Origin: an uncultured Mediterraneibacter sp.
Lineage (GTDB): Bacteria; Bacillota; Clostridia; Lachnospirales; Lachnospiraceae
Length of the DNA: 52,827 nt
Assembly: GCF_934309415.1 (NCBI RefSeq)
Contig: NZ_CAKRDI010000021.1
Coordinates: 1 to 52,827, forward strand
Direction of reading: 5' to 3'
This document shows positions 22,335 through 49,900 of the stretch, piece by piece; position 1 is the first letter of the stretch; every line of letters starts with the position of its first letter. Under the pieces are notes generated by a model. The model saw only the letters and a list, made by a program, of their open reading frames with translations, had not been told where the DNA came from and did not search any database. The position numbers and the translations under genes are program-made.

Positions 22335-22367
22335 GTTACTGTTTGCAGGTTGCCTGTGAACAGTAAC
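22335..22367 (-). repeat. Dispersed 33-bp palindrome, copy
   Basis: GTTACTGTTTGCAG-GTTGC-CTGTGAACAGTAAC, a near-perfect copy in minus orientation just after the thiI stop. Both arms pair except for the two-base internal mismatch characteristic of the family. Confidence 0.85.
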
Positions 22368-22692: not shown

Positions 22693-22851
22693 TTGAAAAT
22701 CCCTCCTTGAATTATACAATAAAGTAAAGGTTTCTGACCTCGTTATTATTCTACGGGATATGGAAATAAAAGTCAAGAGTGATTGACAAGGGAATACACA
22801 GTAACCAAGAATTAGTAGAACATATATAATAGAAAAATGAGGTGATAGATT

Positions 22852-30342: not shown

Positions 30343-30374
30343 GTTATTGTTTACAGATATTTTGTGAACAGTAA
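30343..30374 (-). repeat. Dispersed palindrome, copy in the comM leader
   Basis: GTTATTGTTTACAG-ATATTTT-GTGAACAGTAA, minus orientation. Arms GTTATTGTT and AACAGTAA pair. The rest of the 30296-30564 leader has a long-range complement, ACAGGTAA (30454-30461) with TTACCTGT (30504-30511), and no gene. Confidence 0.75.
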
Positions 30375-30564
30375 TACATCTAATCAGGTTAGAACATGTC
30401 TTGATAATTAGTTTCAGACGGTTCTGTTTCAACCCAAAATTCAATTTTATTTTACAGGTAACAGGAGAACGAATTTTAAACAGGAAAACTTTATTGGTTT
30501 GAATTACCTGTACAGGAATGATTCATGAAGAATGCATGAGCATCATCAGGAAAGGAGCATGTAT

Positions 30565-33332: not shown

Positions 33333-35414
33333 ATGGCACACTATCTTGTTATCGTAGAGTCTCCGGCAAAAGTAAAAACAATTAAAAAGTTTCTGGGAAG
33401 CAGTTATACGGTTGCCGCATCTCAGGGACATGTAAGGGATCTTCCCAAAAGTCAGCTTGGAATTGATGTGGAGAATGACTACGAGCCGAAATATATTACG
33501 ATCAGAGGAAAAGGAGATATTCTGGCGACTCTGAGAAAAGAAGCAAAGAAGTCAGACAAAGTCTTTCTTGCAACCGACCCTGACCGTGAGGGAGAGGCAA
33601 TTTCCTGGCATCTGGCTGCAGCGTTAAAGCTGGATGACAAGAAGATGCGCCGTATTACATTTAACGAGATTACAAAGAATGCAGTAAAAGCATCTCTGAA
33701 GAACCCCAGAGATATCGATATGAACCTGGTGGATGCACAGCAGGCCCGCCGAATTCTCGACCGTATGGTGGGATATAAAATCAGTCCGGTACTCTGGGCA
33801 AAAGTAAAAAGAGGATTAAGTGCCGGAAGAGTACAGTCAGTTGCGCTCAGAATCATCGCTGACCGCGAAGAAGAGATCGATGCATTTATCCCGGAAGAGT
33901 ACTGGTCGCTGGATGCGATCCTGAAGATCAAAGGTGAAAGACGTCCGCTGACAGCAAAATTCTATGGAACTGAGAAAGAAAAGATGACGATCGGTTCGAA
34001 AGAAGAGCTGGATCAGATTGTCAATTCTCTGGAAAAAGAAGAATTTAAAGTTACAGATATCAGACGTGGTGAGAGAATCCGTAAAGCACCACTTCCATTT
34101 ACAACGAGTACCCTCCAGCAGGAGGCTGCCAAAGCATTGAATTTTGGTACACAGAAGACAATGCGTATCGCACAGCAGTTATACGAGGGTGTGGATATCA
34201 AAGGAAGCGGAACAGTCGGTGTGATCACCTATCTCCGTACAGATTCTACCAGAATTTCTGACGAGGCAGATGCTTCTGCAAGAGCTTACATTGCTTCTAT
34301 GTATGGAGAAGAATATGTGGCAGCAGGCAGTACAGTAAAGAACAGTGATAAGAAGATTCAGGATGCCCATGAAGCAATCCGTCCGACAGATATTGCGAGA
34401 ACTCCGGCAGAGATCAAGGATTCTCTGAGCAGAGATCAGTTCCGTTTGTATCAACTGATCTGGAAGCGTTTTACAGCCAGCAGAATGCAGCCGGCAAAGT
34501 ACGAGACAACGTCCGTTAAGATCGGAGCAGGGGACTATCGCTTTACAGTTTCTACAACAAGAATTGCGTTTGACGGTTTCCGTTCCGTATATACAGAGGC
34601 AGATGAAGAGAAAGAAGAGAGCAACGTACTGGTTGGAAATCTGAATATGGATTCTGTTCTTACAAAAGAAGATTTCGAGATGAAACAGCATTTTACACAG
34701 CCGCCGGCACATTATACAGAAGCCAGTCTGGTAAAGACACTGGAAGAACTGGGAATCGGACGTCCAAGTACTTATGCACCGACAATTTCCATTATTCTCG
34801 GAAGACGCTATGTCACTAAAGAAGGTAAGAATCTCTATATGACAGAGATCGGAGAAGTTGTAAATAATATTATGAAACAGTCATTCCCGAGCATCGTGGA
34901 TGAGCACTTCACAGCCAATATGGAAGGACTTCTCGATATGGTAGAAGAAGGAAAGGTAGCGTGGAAAGAAGTAATCCGCAATTTCTATCCGGATCTGGAT
35001 GAGGCAGTACAGAAAGCAGAGAAAGAGTTGGAGTCTGTCAAGATTGAAGATGAAGTGACAGATGTAATCTGTGAAGAATGTGGCCGTAATATGGTTATTA
35101 AATATGGTCCGCATGGAAAATTCCTTGCATGTCCTGGATTTCCGGAATGCAGAAATACAAAACCGTATCTGGAGAAAATCGGTGTGCCGTGTCCGGTTTG
35201 CGGAAAAGATGTTGTGATCCGCAAGACGAAGAAGGGCAGAAAATATTATGGCTGCGAGAATAATCCGGAATGTGAATTTATGTCCTGGCAGAAACCATCG
35301 AAAGAAAAATGCCCGCAGTGTGGTGGATATATGGTTGAAAAAGGGAATAAGTTAGTCTGTGCAGATGAACAGTGTGGATATGTAACTTCACTGAAAAAAG
35401 ATGACGAAAAATAA
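33333..35414 (+). CDS. topA: DNA topoisomerase I
   Basis: Type IA topoisomerase relaxing negative supercoils, 693 residues. The Toprim domain starts YLVIVESPAKVKTIKKFLG and has DPDREGEAISWH. The catalytic tyrosine is Tyr300 in TYLRTDSTRIS. Three C4 zinc ribbons end the protein (CEECGRN..., CPVCGKD..., CPQCGGY...). The ATG at 33333 follows GGAGGAG by 9 bases and gives the standard MAHYLVIVES start; an in-frame start at 33315 is inside that ribosome site. The 143-bp repeat element begins 3 bases after its stop codon. Confidence 0.96.
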   Translation: MAHYLVIVESPAKVKTIKKFLGSSYTVAASQGHVRDLPKSQLGIDVENDYEPKYITIRGKGDILATLRKEAKKSDKVFLATDPDREGEAISWHLAAALKLDDKKMRRITFNEITKNAVKASLKNPRDIDMNLVDAQQARRILDRMVGYKISPVLWAKVKRGLSAGRVQSVALRIIADREEEIDAFIPEEYWSLDAILKIKGERRPLTAKFYGTEKEKMTIGSKEELDQIVNSLEKEEFKVTDIRRGERIRKAPLPFTTSTLQQEAAKALNFGTQKTMRIAQQLYEGVDIKGSGTVGVITYLRTDSTRISDEADASARAYIASMYGEEYVAAGSTVKNSDKKIQDAHEAIRPTDIARTPAEIKDSLSRDQFRLYQLIWKRFTASRMQPAKYETTSVKIGAGDYRFTVSTTRIAFDGFRSVYTEADEEKEESNVLVGNLNMDSVLTKEDFEMKQHFTQPPAHYTEASLVKTLEELGIGRPSTYAPTISIILGRRYVTKEGKNLYMTEIGEVVNNIMKQSFPSIVDEHFTANMEGLLDMVEEGKVAWKEVIRNFYPDLDEAVQKAEKELESVKIEDEVTDVICEECGRNMVIKYGPHGKFLACPGFPECRNTKPYLEKIGVPCPVCGKDVVIRKTKKGRKYYGCENNPECEFMSWQKPSKEKCPQCGGYMVEKGNKLVCADEQCGYVTSLKKDDEK

Positions 35415-35416
35415 TG

Positions 35417-35559
35417 GTTAATGTTCACTCCAATGTCAATCACTTCGCTGATTGGCATGGAGGATGCACGTATTGTCTTGAATGTATCTCGTCCATCGCC
35501 AAAGGCGATTCTAAATGACGAGATACGTTACTGTTTGCAGCTATGCTGTGAACAGTAAC
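35417..35559 (-). repeat. 143-bp structured repeat element, full copy (minus)
   Basis: Read on the minus strand it has three parts. Part A is the 33-bp palindrome (35527-35559). Part B is a two-step hairpin, GTATCTCGTC with GACGAGATAC and inside it ATCGCC-TTT-GGCGAT. Part C has a stem with CAATCA/TGATTG and CTCCA/TGGAG and ends in GAACATTAAC. It aligns end to end with the copy at 36975-37117, same length. Differences in the part B stems are matched on both arms. It fills the start of the topA-codY gap and encodes nothing visible. Confidence 0.88.
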
Positions 35560-35687
35560 AAATAATGTGAAAAAATAAAGACGGTATGAGGAAAATTTAT
35601 TGATGTTTTCAGAATTGTATGATAATATAATTTTGGTTAATAAATTTTTTGGATTTGTATATACAACTTGAAGGTATGGAGGAAACA

Positions 35688-36467
35688 ATGAGCGTACAAT
35701 TATTGGATAAAACCAGAAAAATAAATAAATTGCTGCACAATAATAATTCCAGTAAAGTTGTGTTTAATGATATCTGTGCCGTACTGACAGAGATTCTTGA
35801 TTCAAACGTACTGGTTGTCAGCAAAAAGGGAAAGATCCTTGGAGTGAGCAAGTGTGATCACGTAAGAGAGATCCATGAACTGATCACGGAATCAGTAGGA
35901 TCACATATCGATGGTATGCTGAATGAGAGACTTTTAAGTGTTCTTTCCACAAAAGAAAATGTAAATCTTGAAACACTTGGATTTTCTGCTGACGCAGTGG
36001 AGGGATGTCAGGCGATCATCACTCCGATTGATATTGCGGGAGAGCGTCTTGGAACATTGTTTATTTATAAACAGGATGCAGGGTATTCCATTGATGATAT
36101 TATTCTGAGTGAATATGGAACTGCCGTTGTAGGACTTGAGATGCTTCGTTCTGTCAATGAGGAGAGTGCGGAAGAGACACGTAAGGAACATGTAGTTCAG
36201 GCTGCAATCGGAACACTTTCATTCTCAGAGCTTGAAGCGATCATACACATCTTTAAAGAACTGGATGGAACAGAAGGAATCCTTGTGGCAAGCAAAGTGG
36301 CAGACCGCGTTGGAATTACCCGTTCTGTGATTGTCAATGCACTTCGTAAATTTGAGAGTGCCGGTGTGATTGAATCCCGTTCTTCCGGTATGAAGGGAAC
36401 TTATATTAAAGTCCTGAATGATTATGTGTTCACAGAACTTGAGCGTATTGAGAAAGAGCGGATGTAA
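35688..36467 (+). CDS. codY: Global transcription regulator CodY
   Basis: CodY represses starvation genes when GTP and branched-chain amino acids are plentiful. The protein has 259 residues: an N-terminal GAF domain from VQLLDKTRKINKLL, and a C-terminal winged helix-turn-helix with ASKVADRVGITRSVIVNALRKFESAGVIESRS, the almost invariant CodY recognition motif. The ATG at 35688 follows GGAGGAAAC; an in-frame start at 35649 would add 13 unconserved residues. It lies downstream of topA as in many Firmicutes but separated by a repeat element, so it probably has its own promoter in 35575-35660 (TATAAT at 35626-35631). Confidence 0.95.
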   Translation: MSVQLLDKTRKINKLLHNNNSSKVVFNDICAVLTEILDSNVLVVSKKGKILGVSKCDHVREIHELITESVGSHIDGMLNERLLSVLSTKENVNLETLGFSADAVEGCQAIITPIDIAGERLGTLFIYKQDAGYSIDDIILSEYGTAVVGLEMLRSVNEESAEETRKEHVVQAAIGTLSFSELEAIIHIFKELDGTEGILVASKVADRVGITRSVIVNALRKFESAGVIESRSSGMKGTYIKVLNDYVFTELERIEKERM

Positions 36468-36504
36468 TGATCTGAGTGATCGGACTCGCCGGAGTGTGTC
36501 TGAG

Positions 36505-36539
36505 CATAAGATTGCTGTTGTGAAAGCAATGTACTTATG
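36505..36539. other. Two-step hairpin after codY
   Basis: CATAAG-ATTGCT (36505-36516) pairs with AGCAAT-GTA-CTTATG (36525-36539). No T-run follows, so it is either a weak terminator or an mRNA end structure. An AGTGTGTCTGA motif lies just before it at 36492. Confidence 0.45.
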
Positions 36540-36603
36540 TGTATGATTCTGATTTTGAGAGTTTTGGCGTGCAACGATAAAGAGTTCAGAAGGGAAGCAG
36601 AAT

Positions 36604-36909
36604 ATGTACGAGGGAAACCCGGTCGATCTGCAGATGGAGAAAGTGATTTCTGCAGATGGAATATTTGACGATACAACAAGAGCATGCAGTGTGTACAGGT
36701 ATGATGAGGAAGAGGATTACATCTATCTGGAGCTGAAAGAAGATAAGCTGACCAATATTTATCTGGATGCGAAGTACAGATGTTATATATCGACAAAGGC
36801 AGAACTGCTGGGATGCAGCGGTGTTGTGAAAGAGCGCTACAGAACAGAAGATCTGAATATTTTAAAATTTAAGATTGAGAATGGATTTTATAATATAAAG
36901 AGAAGATAG
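36604..36909 (+). CDS. Hypothetical 101-residue protein (possibly PilZ/YcgR N-domain-like)
   Basis: A small soluble protein, recognised only as hypothetical. AGAAGGGAAGCAGAAT gives a ribosome site, codon use is like the neighbours, and the frame is closed by a normal stop, so it is likely real. The alternating pattern YIYLELKEDKLTNIYLDAKYRCYI followed by GCSGVVKERYRTEDLNILKFKIENGFY (all beta-strand-like) vaguely recalls the N-terminal domain of YcgR-type proteins, but this is a guess. It follows codY after 136 bases and a strong terminator comes after it (37128-37174). No signal peptide or membrane segment. Confidence 0.7.
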   Translation: MYEGNPVDLQMEKVISADGIFDDTTRACSVYRYDEEEDYIYLELKEDKLTNIYLDAKYRCYISTKAELLGCSGVVKERYRTEDLNILKFKIENGFYNIKRR

Positions 36910-36931
36910 TTCTTACCTGAAAAAGTGAGAA

Positions 36932-36964
36932 ATCATTGTTCAGAGCAATCCTGTGAACAGTGAT
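36932..36964 (-). repeat. Dispersed palindrome, variant copy
   Basis: ATCATTGTTCAGAG-CAATC-CTGTGAACAGTGAT: 33 bases, arms pair at ATCA/TGAT and TGTTCA/TGAACA. It lies 10 bases before the full 143-bp element. Confidence 0.65.
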
Positions 36965-36974
36965 CTGAGAAAGG

Positions 36975-37117
36975 GTTACTGTTCACAGCGTAGCTGCAAA
37001 CAGTAACGCATCTCGCCATTTAGAATCGTCTGCGACGATGGGCGAGATGCATTCAGGCCAAAACGTGCATTCTCCATGCCAATCAGCGGAGTGATTGACA
37101 TGGGAATGAACAGTAAC
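36975..37117 (+). repeat. 143-bp structured repeat element, full copy (plus)
   Basis: Part A at 36975-37007 is GTTACTGTTCACAG-CGTAG-CTGCAAACAGTAAC. Part B is GCATCTCGCC with GGCGAGATGC, and inside ATCGTC-TGC-GACGAT. Part C begins ATTCAGGCCAAAACGT, folds CATTC/CCATG/CAATCA against TGATTG/CATGG/AATG, and ends GAACAGTAAC, repeating the right end of part A. It is the inverted counterpart of the element at 35417-35559; together they flank codY and the small gene after it. Confidence 0.9.
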
Positions 37118-37127
37118 GAGAAAGGAC

Positions 37128-37174
37128 CACAGAAGAGATGAGAGAAACGGAAATCATTTCTTCTGTGTTTTTTT
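37128..37174 (+). terminator. Terminator after the 36604-36909 gene
   Basis: CACAGAAGAGATGA (37128-37141) pairs with TCATTTCTTCTGTG (37154-37167), 13 of 14 standard pairs plus one G-T, then seven T's. A strong intrinsic terminator immediately downstream of the repeat element. Confidence 0.9.
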
Positions 37175-37214
37175 ATATATCAGGAAAGTACTCTTTCTAA
37201 TATATAAAAATAAT

Positions 37215-37264
37215 GTTGTTGTTCACAGGCAATCCCTGGAAATAGTAATGTATCTCGCCATTAT
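37215..37264 (+). repeat. Truncated copy of the 143-bp element
   Basis: GTTGTTGTTCACAGGCAATC, then CCTGGAAATAGTAA and TGTATCTCGCCATTA. It matches part A and the first 14 bases of part B, then ends. It stands about 30 bases upstream of the groES -35 box. Confidence 0.65.
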
Positions 37265-37295
37265 CTTTTATCTTTATAAAAAATATGTAAACTGG

Positions 37296-37324
37296 TTGAC
37301 AAATGAGGTGCAGAGTGCTATTTT
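37296..37324 (+). promoter_or_regulatory. groESL promoter
   Basis: TTGACA (37296-37301), 17-base spacer, TATTTT (37319-37324). The CIRCE operator lies directly downstream, so HrcA bound there would block the polymerase. GAGTGCTA at 37313-37320, overlapping the -10 box, copies one CIRCE half-site. Confidence 0.8.
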
Positions 37325-37722: not shown

Positions 37723-37751
37723 GTTATTGTTTACAGAAATTGTGAACAGCA
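37723..37751 (-). repeat. Dispersed palindrome inside the groES-groEL gap
   Basis: GTTATTGTTTACAG-AAAT-TGTGAACAGCA lies 2 bases after the groES stop, between two genes of one operon. It would be part of the groESL mRNA as a hairpin, so it can affect the balance of the two products. Confidence 0.65.
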
Positions 37752-42388: not shown

Positions 42389-42421
42389 GTTACTGTTCAC
42401 AGCATAGCTGCAAACAGTAAC
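42389..42421 (+). repeat. Dispersed 33-bp palindrome, copy
   Basis: GTTACTGTTCACAG-CATAG-CTGCAAACAGTAAC, a consensus copy in plus orientation 14 bases after the amidase stop. It may serve as the 3' end hairpin of that transcript, though no T-run follows. Confidence 0.88.
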
Positions 42422-49807: not shown

Positions 49808-49836
49808 AATGTGTATTCCTTTCTTATAGGAGAAGT

Positions 49837-49900
49837 ATTCAGGCCAAAACGTATATTCTCATATCTAATCGACAAGGGGATTATCTATGGTCTGAACAAT
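49837..49900 (+). repeat. Partial 143-bp element (part C only)
   Basis: ATTCAGGCCAAAACGT is identical over 16 bases to part C of the full element; the following ATATTCTC, AATCGACAAGGGGATT and TGAACAAT are degenerate. Parts A and B are missing. It lies directly upstream of nfo. Confidence 0.65.

What the first reader, a model, noticed from the sequence alone, without database searches (positions are those of the whole stretch)
35417..37117. 143-bp element with compensatory changes between two copies
Two copies of equal length lie in opposite orientation. In the part B hairpin, outer arms are GCATCTCGCC/GGCGAGATGC in one copy and GTATCTCGTC/GACGAGATAC in the other; the inner stem is ATCGTC/GACGAT versus ATCGCC/GGCGAT. 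Three base pairs are changed on both sides at once while the loop flank ATTTAGA is kept. That pattern is expected when a fold is maintained. The element is non-coding and ends repeat its start (AACAGTAAC). It could be a non-autonomous mobile element, a REP-like element or a structured RNA; I do not recognise it as a described family.
Basis: seen in the sequence. Interest (0 to 1): 0.8.

Follow-up and report, generated by a model that had tools for sequence, protein, structure and literature searches.

The report
Three-hairpin MITE family of Lachnospiraceae
The two 143-base copies are insertions of a small non-coding jumping element found in many genomes of one family of gut bacteria; it has the ends of a known transposon type but carries a three-hairpin fold whose pairing is kept while its letters change, and why the fold is kept is not yet known.

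Summary
The two window copies (35417-35559 +, 36975-37117 -; 126 of 143 identical) are insertions of a non-autonomous transposable element (MITE). Both lie between exact 8-bp direct repeats and have GTTACTGTTCA-type inverted ends. A covariance model finds the three-hairpin architecture in 44 of 397 sampled genomes of the family; 12 positive genomes hold 10-140 matches each. In 39 copies from 31 genomes, 40 of 43 base pairs are changed on both sides somewhere (392 cells against 104.5 in shuffles). The fold is maintained. No Rfam family reaches its threshold.

The ends and the 8-bp duplication are those of IS66-family elements of the ISBst12 type: 21 of 28 IS66-type C-termini have this end within 180 nt after the stop codon, and two full IS copies with 8-bp duplications were found. 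Mobilisation in trans is inferred; transposase and MITE overlap in genomes no more than chance gives.

Why the fold is kept is open. Orientation bias and G-U excess in hairpins A and C point to RNA; hairpin B, with 4 G-U in 602 pairs, points to DNA. New variant of a known kind.

The parts
35417..35559 (+). Element copy 1, between topA and codY, 2 nt after the topA stop codon
35409..35416 (+). Left 8-bp target-site duplication AAATAATG (contains the topA stop codon)
   Evidence: sequence
35560..35567 (+). Right 8-bp target-site duplication AAATAATG
   Evidence: sequence
35428..35462 (+). Copy 1 hairpin A
35484..35526 (+). Copy 1 hairpin B: 10-bp outer stem, 6-bp inner hairpin, unpaired TCTAAAT on the 3' side
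35527..35559 (+). Copy 1 hairpin C, the palindromic right end
36975..37117 (-). Element copy 2, between a 101-aa ORF and groES
36967..36974 (+). 8-bp target-site duplication GAGAAAGG
   Evidence: (CCTTTCTC on the - strand), sequence
37118..37125 (+). 8-bp target-site duplication GAGAAAGG
   Evidence: (CCTTTCTC on the - strand), sequence
37072..37106 (-). Copy 2 hairpin A
37008..37050 (-). Copy 2 hairpin B
36975..37007 (-). Copy 2 hairpin C, palindromic end
22335..22367 (.). Solo hairpin C (33-bp palindrome) between 8-bp repeats AAACAGTT
30343..30375 (.). Solo hairpin C (33-bp palindrome) between 8-bp repeats ACATCTAA
42389..42421 (.). Solo hairpin C (33-bp palindrome), flanks match 7 of 8

Best explanation
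[quoted passage not shown] SHOWN: inverted ends GTTACTGTTCA / TGAACAGTAAC (some genomes GTAAC...), 8-bp target-site duplication, dispersed multi-copy presence at different sites, the same ends and 8-bp duplication in IS66-family elements (ISBst12-like) of the same bacterial family, and a three-hairpin fold (A, B with an inner hairpin, C) kept by compensatory change. INFERRED: an IS66/ISBst12-type transposase acting in trans recognises the ends, copies or moves the element and inserts it at staggered 8-bp cuts. INFERRED, less certain: the hairpins are kept because the element is transcribed inside operon transcripts, where they shape the RNA (processing, stability, no disruption of neighbours), so copies with an intact fold are tolerated and spread. 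A DNA-level reason is the close rival. I give about 0.9 to the MITE identity, about 0.75 to IS66-type mobilisation and about 0.45 to the RNA-level reason.
For: Duplications: flanks match at 7 or 8 of 8 positions in 38 of 43 copies with both flanks present and in 22 of 29 copies fetched from 29 genomes, against 26 of 5800 random positions. Copies: 48 model matches in G016, 10-140 in the 12 positive genomes re-searched; 44 of 397 family genomes positive. The topA loci of 12 genus relatives (L103-L114) and 4 groEL loci (L001-L004) hold no match, so the insertions look lineage-specific. Ends: 21 of 28 IS66-type C-termini have the end (at most 1 mismatch) within 180 nt of the stop, one of the 21 being the query remnant itself; random windows of the same loci 207 of 5600; complete IS of 2358 bp (L233, duplication GCCGGAAT) and 2394 bp (L235, CAAAGCCC); Pfam PF03050 in both; the published ISDge4, ISBst12 group, has an end GTAACTGCTCAGCA and an 8-bp repeat (PMC12898284, passages). 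Fold: 40 of 43 pairs with a double change, 392 cells against 104.5 +/- 9.5 shuffled; outer B forms without the model in 37 of 39 rows. RNA reading: 20 copies run with and 7 against co-directional neighbour genes (two-sided p 0.019); G-U against A-C mismatches 22:10 in A and 24:3 in C.
Against: Presence of this transposase clade and of the MITE overlap in only 5 genomes (G016, G101, G120, G196, G429) where about 4.1 are expected (44 and 37 of 397). PF03050 was found in 5 of 15 genomes searched, 14 of them MITE-bearing, and no 1-3.5 kb element with exact ends appears in the G442 site list. Draft assemblies lose multi-copy IS (recalled), so this weakens but does not refute. 7 of 28 testable IS66 C-termini lack the end. 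NCBIfam IS66 matches stay below its cut-off (161.9 and 137 against 180). Stem B has 4 G-U in 602 standard pairs against 35 of 415 in 19 tRNAs, unlike an RNA. 5 of 43 and 7 of 29 copies lack a clear duplication. Gene calls behind the orientation count are crude. Alignment A4 was fitted to the structure, and hairpin C is recovered without the model in only 19 of 39 rows.
Confidence: 0.8

Rival explanations
1. Same MITE, but the hairpins are kept at DNA level: single-stranded or cruciform hairpins are read by the transposase or a replication protein, as folded recombination sites are.
For: Stem B tolerates almost no G-U pairs: 4 G-U in 602 standard pairs, with 5 A-C mismatches beside them, far below tRNA (35 of 415). 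Hairpin C is itself a palindrome of the transposon end, and 31-33 bp solo C units occur with 8-bp duplications.
Against: I saw no hairpin A or B by eye in the 150 nt printed from each end of the two full IS66-type elements, so the transposase may not need them. G-U exceeds A-C in A and C, and copies have an orientation bias.
Confidence: 0.35
2. Same MITE, but no selection on the fold: replication template switching repairs imperfect palindromes to perfect ones, which mimics compensatory change.
For: Near absence of G-U in B and near-perfect arms are what palindrome correction gives. Arms turn over between genomes (26 distinct left outer arms in 39 rows).
Against: The unpaired 3' side of the inner loop (TTTAAATG-like) and the inner hairpin letters stay similar in many rows while the arms change, and the order A-B-C is kept in 31 genomes; mutation alone would not be expected to keep these.
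Confidence: 0.12
3. A REP-like element spread by a REP-associated tyrosine transposase.
For: Short, palindromic, mostly intergenic, many copies.
Against: 8-bp target-site duplications and long shared ends are not expected of REP/RAYT spread (recalled); IS66-type elements with matching ends exist. RAYT genes themselves were not searched.
Confidence: 0.03
4. A host riboswitch-like or sRNA family that only looks mobile.
For: Strong covariation.
Against: Target-site duplications, up to 140 matches per genome spread over many contigs, no Rfam family at threshold. Neighbour genes were not named copy by copy.
Confidence: 0.03

Closest known systems
IS66-family insertion sequences, ISBst12 group (one transposase gene), e.g. 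ISDge4 (PMC12898284, passages seen)
   Same: Ends of the type GTAACTGYTCA, 8-bp direct repeats; relatives in the same bacterial family carry the MITE's ends.
   Different: The element has no gene, is about 16 times shorter, and hairpins A and B were not seen at the ends of the two full IS copies looked at. One of those (L235) has a further small ORF before the transposase.
Bacterial MITEs in general, e.g. MITECca01 from an IS982-family parent (PMC9769881, passages seen) and QMITE2 of Coxiella (PMC10969869, passages seen)
   Same: Short, non-coding, inverted ends, an IS parent; for QMITE2 also direct repeats of 7-9 bp and a stable transcript fold.
   Different: Those are described in one strain or species in the passages seen; here one three-hairpin architecture with conserved pairing and changing letters is found in 44 of 397 genomes of a bacterial family.
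BOX and Correia/NEMIS elements (recalled)
   Same: Modular intergenic elements with stable hairpins and an IS-like origin.
   Different: Different hosts, ends and modules; no sequence comparison was made.
REP elements with RAYT transposases (PMC2817692, search listing only; features recalled)
   Same: Intergenic palindromes in many copies.
   Different: No target-site duplication is expected there; here 8-bp duplications are the rule.

Membership tests
MITE | Short (under about 300 bp) and without a gene | tested here: met
   143 bp in the window, about 130-175 bp in full-length relatives listed; the only ORF of 80 aa or more overlapping a copy is an 82-aa minus-strand frame over copy 1 with no support
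MITE | Terminal inverted repeats | tested here: met
   GTTACTGTTCA / TGAACAGTAAC and variants
MITE | Target-site duplication of constant length | tested here: met
   8 bp; 38 of 43 and 22 of 29, control 26 of 5800
MITE | Dispersed multi-copy presence | tested here: met
   48 model matches in G016, 10-140 in 12 positive genomes
MITE | Ends shared with an autonomous parent IS | tested here: met
   IS66-type elements L233 (identical end) and L235 (2 mismatches) and 21 of 28 C-termini; a full parent in the same genome as the MITE was not found
MITE | Mobilised in trans by the parent's transposase | not testable with these tools
   Needs an experiment; presence across genomes does not correlate
IS66 family, ISBst12 group | 8-bp direct repeats | tested here: met
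   literature passage
IS66 family, ISBst12 group | Encodes an IS66 transposase | tested here: not met
   The element is non-coding, so it is at most a derivative, not a member
Known RNA family (Rfam 15) | Reaches a family's gathering score | tested here: not met
REP/RAYT | No target-site duplication (recalled) | tested here: not met
   8-bp duplications
REP/RAYT | Linked RAYT gene (recalled) | not tested
   No search made

The most novel reading that the evidence does not exclude
Hairpins A and B with their linker form a functional structured core of its own, RNA or folded DNA, found in Lachnospiraceae and carried from site to site on IS66-type ends. In genome G796 three copies of the same A+B core sit on different ends, as if the core had changed vehicle. 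It would be a mobile, structure-conserved regulatory part that is inserted between genes by the dozen.
Probability: 0.35. Interest if true: 0.8.

Novelty: new variant of a known kind. Interest (0 to 1): 0.6.

Why it matters
MITEs are usually read as passive IS relics that need only their ends. Here the inside is conserved as structure over a bacterial family while its letters turn over, so something probably reads it. Matches number up to 140 per genome in a family common in the gut (recalled), and copies often lie between co-directional genes (27 of 44; topA-codY-groES in the window), so an effect on transcripts would be widespread. The family is also a ready covariation data set for asking whether a mobile element's hairpins are kept as RNA, as DNA or by mutation alone.

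Tried and rejected
Rfam at gathering and permissive thresholds: nothing relevant (sub-threshold miRNA matches to hairpin C of L084, the best 37.7 bits against a gathering score of 82, are taken as palindrome noise). Phage and plasmid collections: one 32-nt match in a phage record, none in plasmids. IMG/VR: no exact match to the B motif, one contig with a G016-like copy, none for a second module. Search for an autonomous element by pairing end sequences in G016 (first 100 listed of 104 sites; 20 stretches read) and G442: none found; one 2.9-kb pair in G016 turned out to be separate small elements. PF03050 loci: L194, L196-L199 and L201 show no such end at 2 mismatches or fewer, L195 only a 2-mismatch sequence, while L200 and L202 (both G016 remnants) have one beside the remnant. 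Terminator or promoter role: in 35380-37300 the simple scans found no terminator inside the copies and 5 promoter-like sites against 6.3 in shuffles. A plain MAFFT alignment of distant copies misaligned B and C, so structure-aware alignment was used and then checked with unconstrained folding, which recovered hairpin C poorly (19 of 39 rows at 70% of pairs or more), A in 29, inner B in 35 and outer B in 37. From the 45 matches the count of record (A4) leaves out six: two truncated L081 matches, a weak window match at 42389, and L082, L087, L175; on all 45 the result is the same (41 of 43 pairs, 438 cells against 123.8). Outside the family: 5 of 391 genomes of the class were positive, G016 among them; I cannot tell how many of the others belong to the same family. 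Literature: in the rows listed (full-text searches of the open library; long result lists were seen only at the top) I saw no paper on a Lachnospiraceae MITE, an IS66-derived MITE or this motif; most subscription papers and all bioRxiv preprints are not held.

Full report
OBSERVATION. The inverted pair 35417-35559 / 36975-37117 is real and is the dominant repeat of the 12 kb scanned. The copies are 126 of 143 identical. Each copy folds far better than its shuffles (z -7.1 and -9.2 on the element's + strand; -6.9 and -6.8 on the other). The ends are inverted repeats, not direct ones.

WHERE IT IS. No whole genome is held for it. The nearest held genus-mates by topA DNA are G024 (83%) and G016 (82%). 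Copy 1 lies between topA and codY, 2 nt after the topA stop; copy 2 lies between a 101-aa ORF and groES (gene names are my reading of the translations).

IT IS A TRANSPOSABLE ELEMENT. Each window copy is flanked by an exact 8-bp direct repeat. With DNA similarity, 1 of 58 genomes of the genus had matches (G016, 14 matches), and 1 of 7 genomes behind the first loci (G003, 23 matches to hairpin A and its flanks). A first model (R1, 8 copies) found 44 of 397 sampled family genomes positive, in the listed rows mostly over its full length. A second model (R2, 39 copies) gave 48 matches in G016 and 10-140 in the 12 positive genomes re-searched (150 candidates were scored per genome, so G441's 140 may be too low). 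Flanks match at 7-8 of 8 positions in 38 of 43 copies (44 rows: 32 from G016, 3 G295, 7 G442, 2 window; one at a contig edge) and in 22 of 29 copies from 29 genomes (24 if the border may shift by 1 nt), against 26 of 5800 random spots. The topA loci of 12 relatives and 4 groEL loci hold no match. Recent movement is suggested by eight G442 copies with the same model score, and two copies 144/145 identical lie in tandem, separated by exactly the 8-bp repeat (L192).

WHICH TRANSPOSASE. A decayed IS66 transposase end in G016 (L202, PF03050) has TGAACAGTAAC ending 76 nt after its stop codon. With its 108-aa piece, 24 of 397 family genomes gave matches. Of 29 matches, 28 could be tested: 21 have the end with at most 1 mismatch within 180 nt after the stop (the query remnant is one of them), 7 do not; random windows of the same loci, which can include such ends themselves, 207 of 5600. 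Two complete elements with exact 8-bp duplications are L233 (2358 bp) and L235 (2394 bp; its end GTTACCATTCA has 2 mismatches). Their proteins match PF03050 and NCBIfam IS66 below its cut-off. ISDge4, filed by its authors in the ISBst12 group of IS66, has ends GTGACTACTCAGCA / GTAACTGCTCAGCA and an 8-bp repeat (PMC12898284, passages). Against a simple dependence: transposase-positive (37 of 397) and MITE-positive (44 of 397) genomes overlap in 5, about 4 expected, and PF03050 was found in 5 of 15 genomes searched.

THE FOLD. On 39 copies from 31 genomes, 94.4% of cells pair, 40 of 43 pairs have a double change, 392 cells against 104.5 +/- 9.5 in shuffles, and sliding the partners by 1-3 columns drops pairing to 26-42%. 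On all 45 matches of the first set the picture is the same. The alignment was fitted to the structure, so I also folded each row without it: outer B recovered in 37 of 39 rows, inner B 35, A 29, C 19. There are 26 distinct left outer B arms among 39 rows, while the inner part often stays near ATCGCCGAAGGCGATTTTAAATG.

RNA OR DNA. In A and C, G-U exceeds A-C (22:10 and 24:3); in B there are 4 G-U in 602 standard pairs and 5 A-C mismatches. 19 tRNAs from the same loci have 35 G-U in 415. Rows are related, so the p values are optimistic; by column and genome the G-U:A-C counts are A 20:9, B 4:5, C 19:3. Between co-directional genes 20 copies run with and 7 against the genes (p 0.019); in G016 alone I count 15 and 3 in that table, and the two window copies are split, one each way. 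Gene calls were made with a crude script. The evidence is mixed, and I lean slightly to RNA.

VARIANTS. Hairpin C alone occurs as 31-33 bp units. In the window two have exact 8-bp duplications and one 7 of 8; in the G016 stretches 6 of 12 have at least 7 of 8. These may be internal deletions or the smallest mobile units; not decided. Other small elements share only the ends. In the class sample 5 of 391 genomes were positive. G796 carries the A+B core on other ends.

VERDICT. A MITE family with IS66-type ends and a structurally conserved core. MITEs as such are known; I saw no description of this family-wide, covarying three-hairpin core in Rfam or in the rows of my literature searches.

Noticed in passing
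window 22335-22367, 30343-30375, 42389-42421: Solo 33-bp hairpin-C palindromes with 8-bp duplications (8/8, 8/8, 7/8): very small units with insertion signs.
   Followed up: partly
window 22777-22805, 36937-36961, 37220-37262, 37723-37750, 49830-49860: Apparent decayed remnants of the same element family (end, hairpin C or linker pieces).
   Followed up: no
L289, L292, L293 (genome G796): Hairpins A and B with their linker on different ends (right-end hairpin ATACATTCTTGAAC.../...GTTCAAGAATGTAT), three copies with unrelated flanks; no clear duplication seen.
   Followed up: partly
L123, L140 (G016) and L290 (G090): Another module, CCCGCGAGGTGTTTTGGCATGAATATGCCAAAATCCCGAGACAT or part of it, occurs inside elements with the same kind of ends in two genomes: the elements look modular.
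   Followed up: partly
L192 1501-1798; G313 C4:214163-214434: Tandem copies separated by exactly 8 bp; in L192 this is the duplication itself, present three times.
   Followed up: partly
L127, L141, L133 (G016): 56-bp, 58-bp and 30-bp palindromes with the same ends and similar flanking repeats.
   Followed up: no
G016 copies, left arm of hairpin B: A run of C varies from 2 to 7 between copies of one genome without matching change in the other arm.
   Followed up: no
L235 1108-1488, L240 75-521: Similar small ORFs (127 and about 149 aa) before the IS66 transposase; the L235 one has no Pfam or NCBIfam match over cut-off.
   Followed up: partly
L296 12374-12515 (IMG/VR contig): A G016-like copy with 8-bp repeats CTTTTAAG in a contig held as viral, with a second partial copy directly after it.
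   Followed up: no
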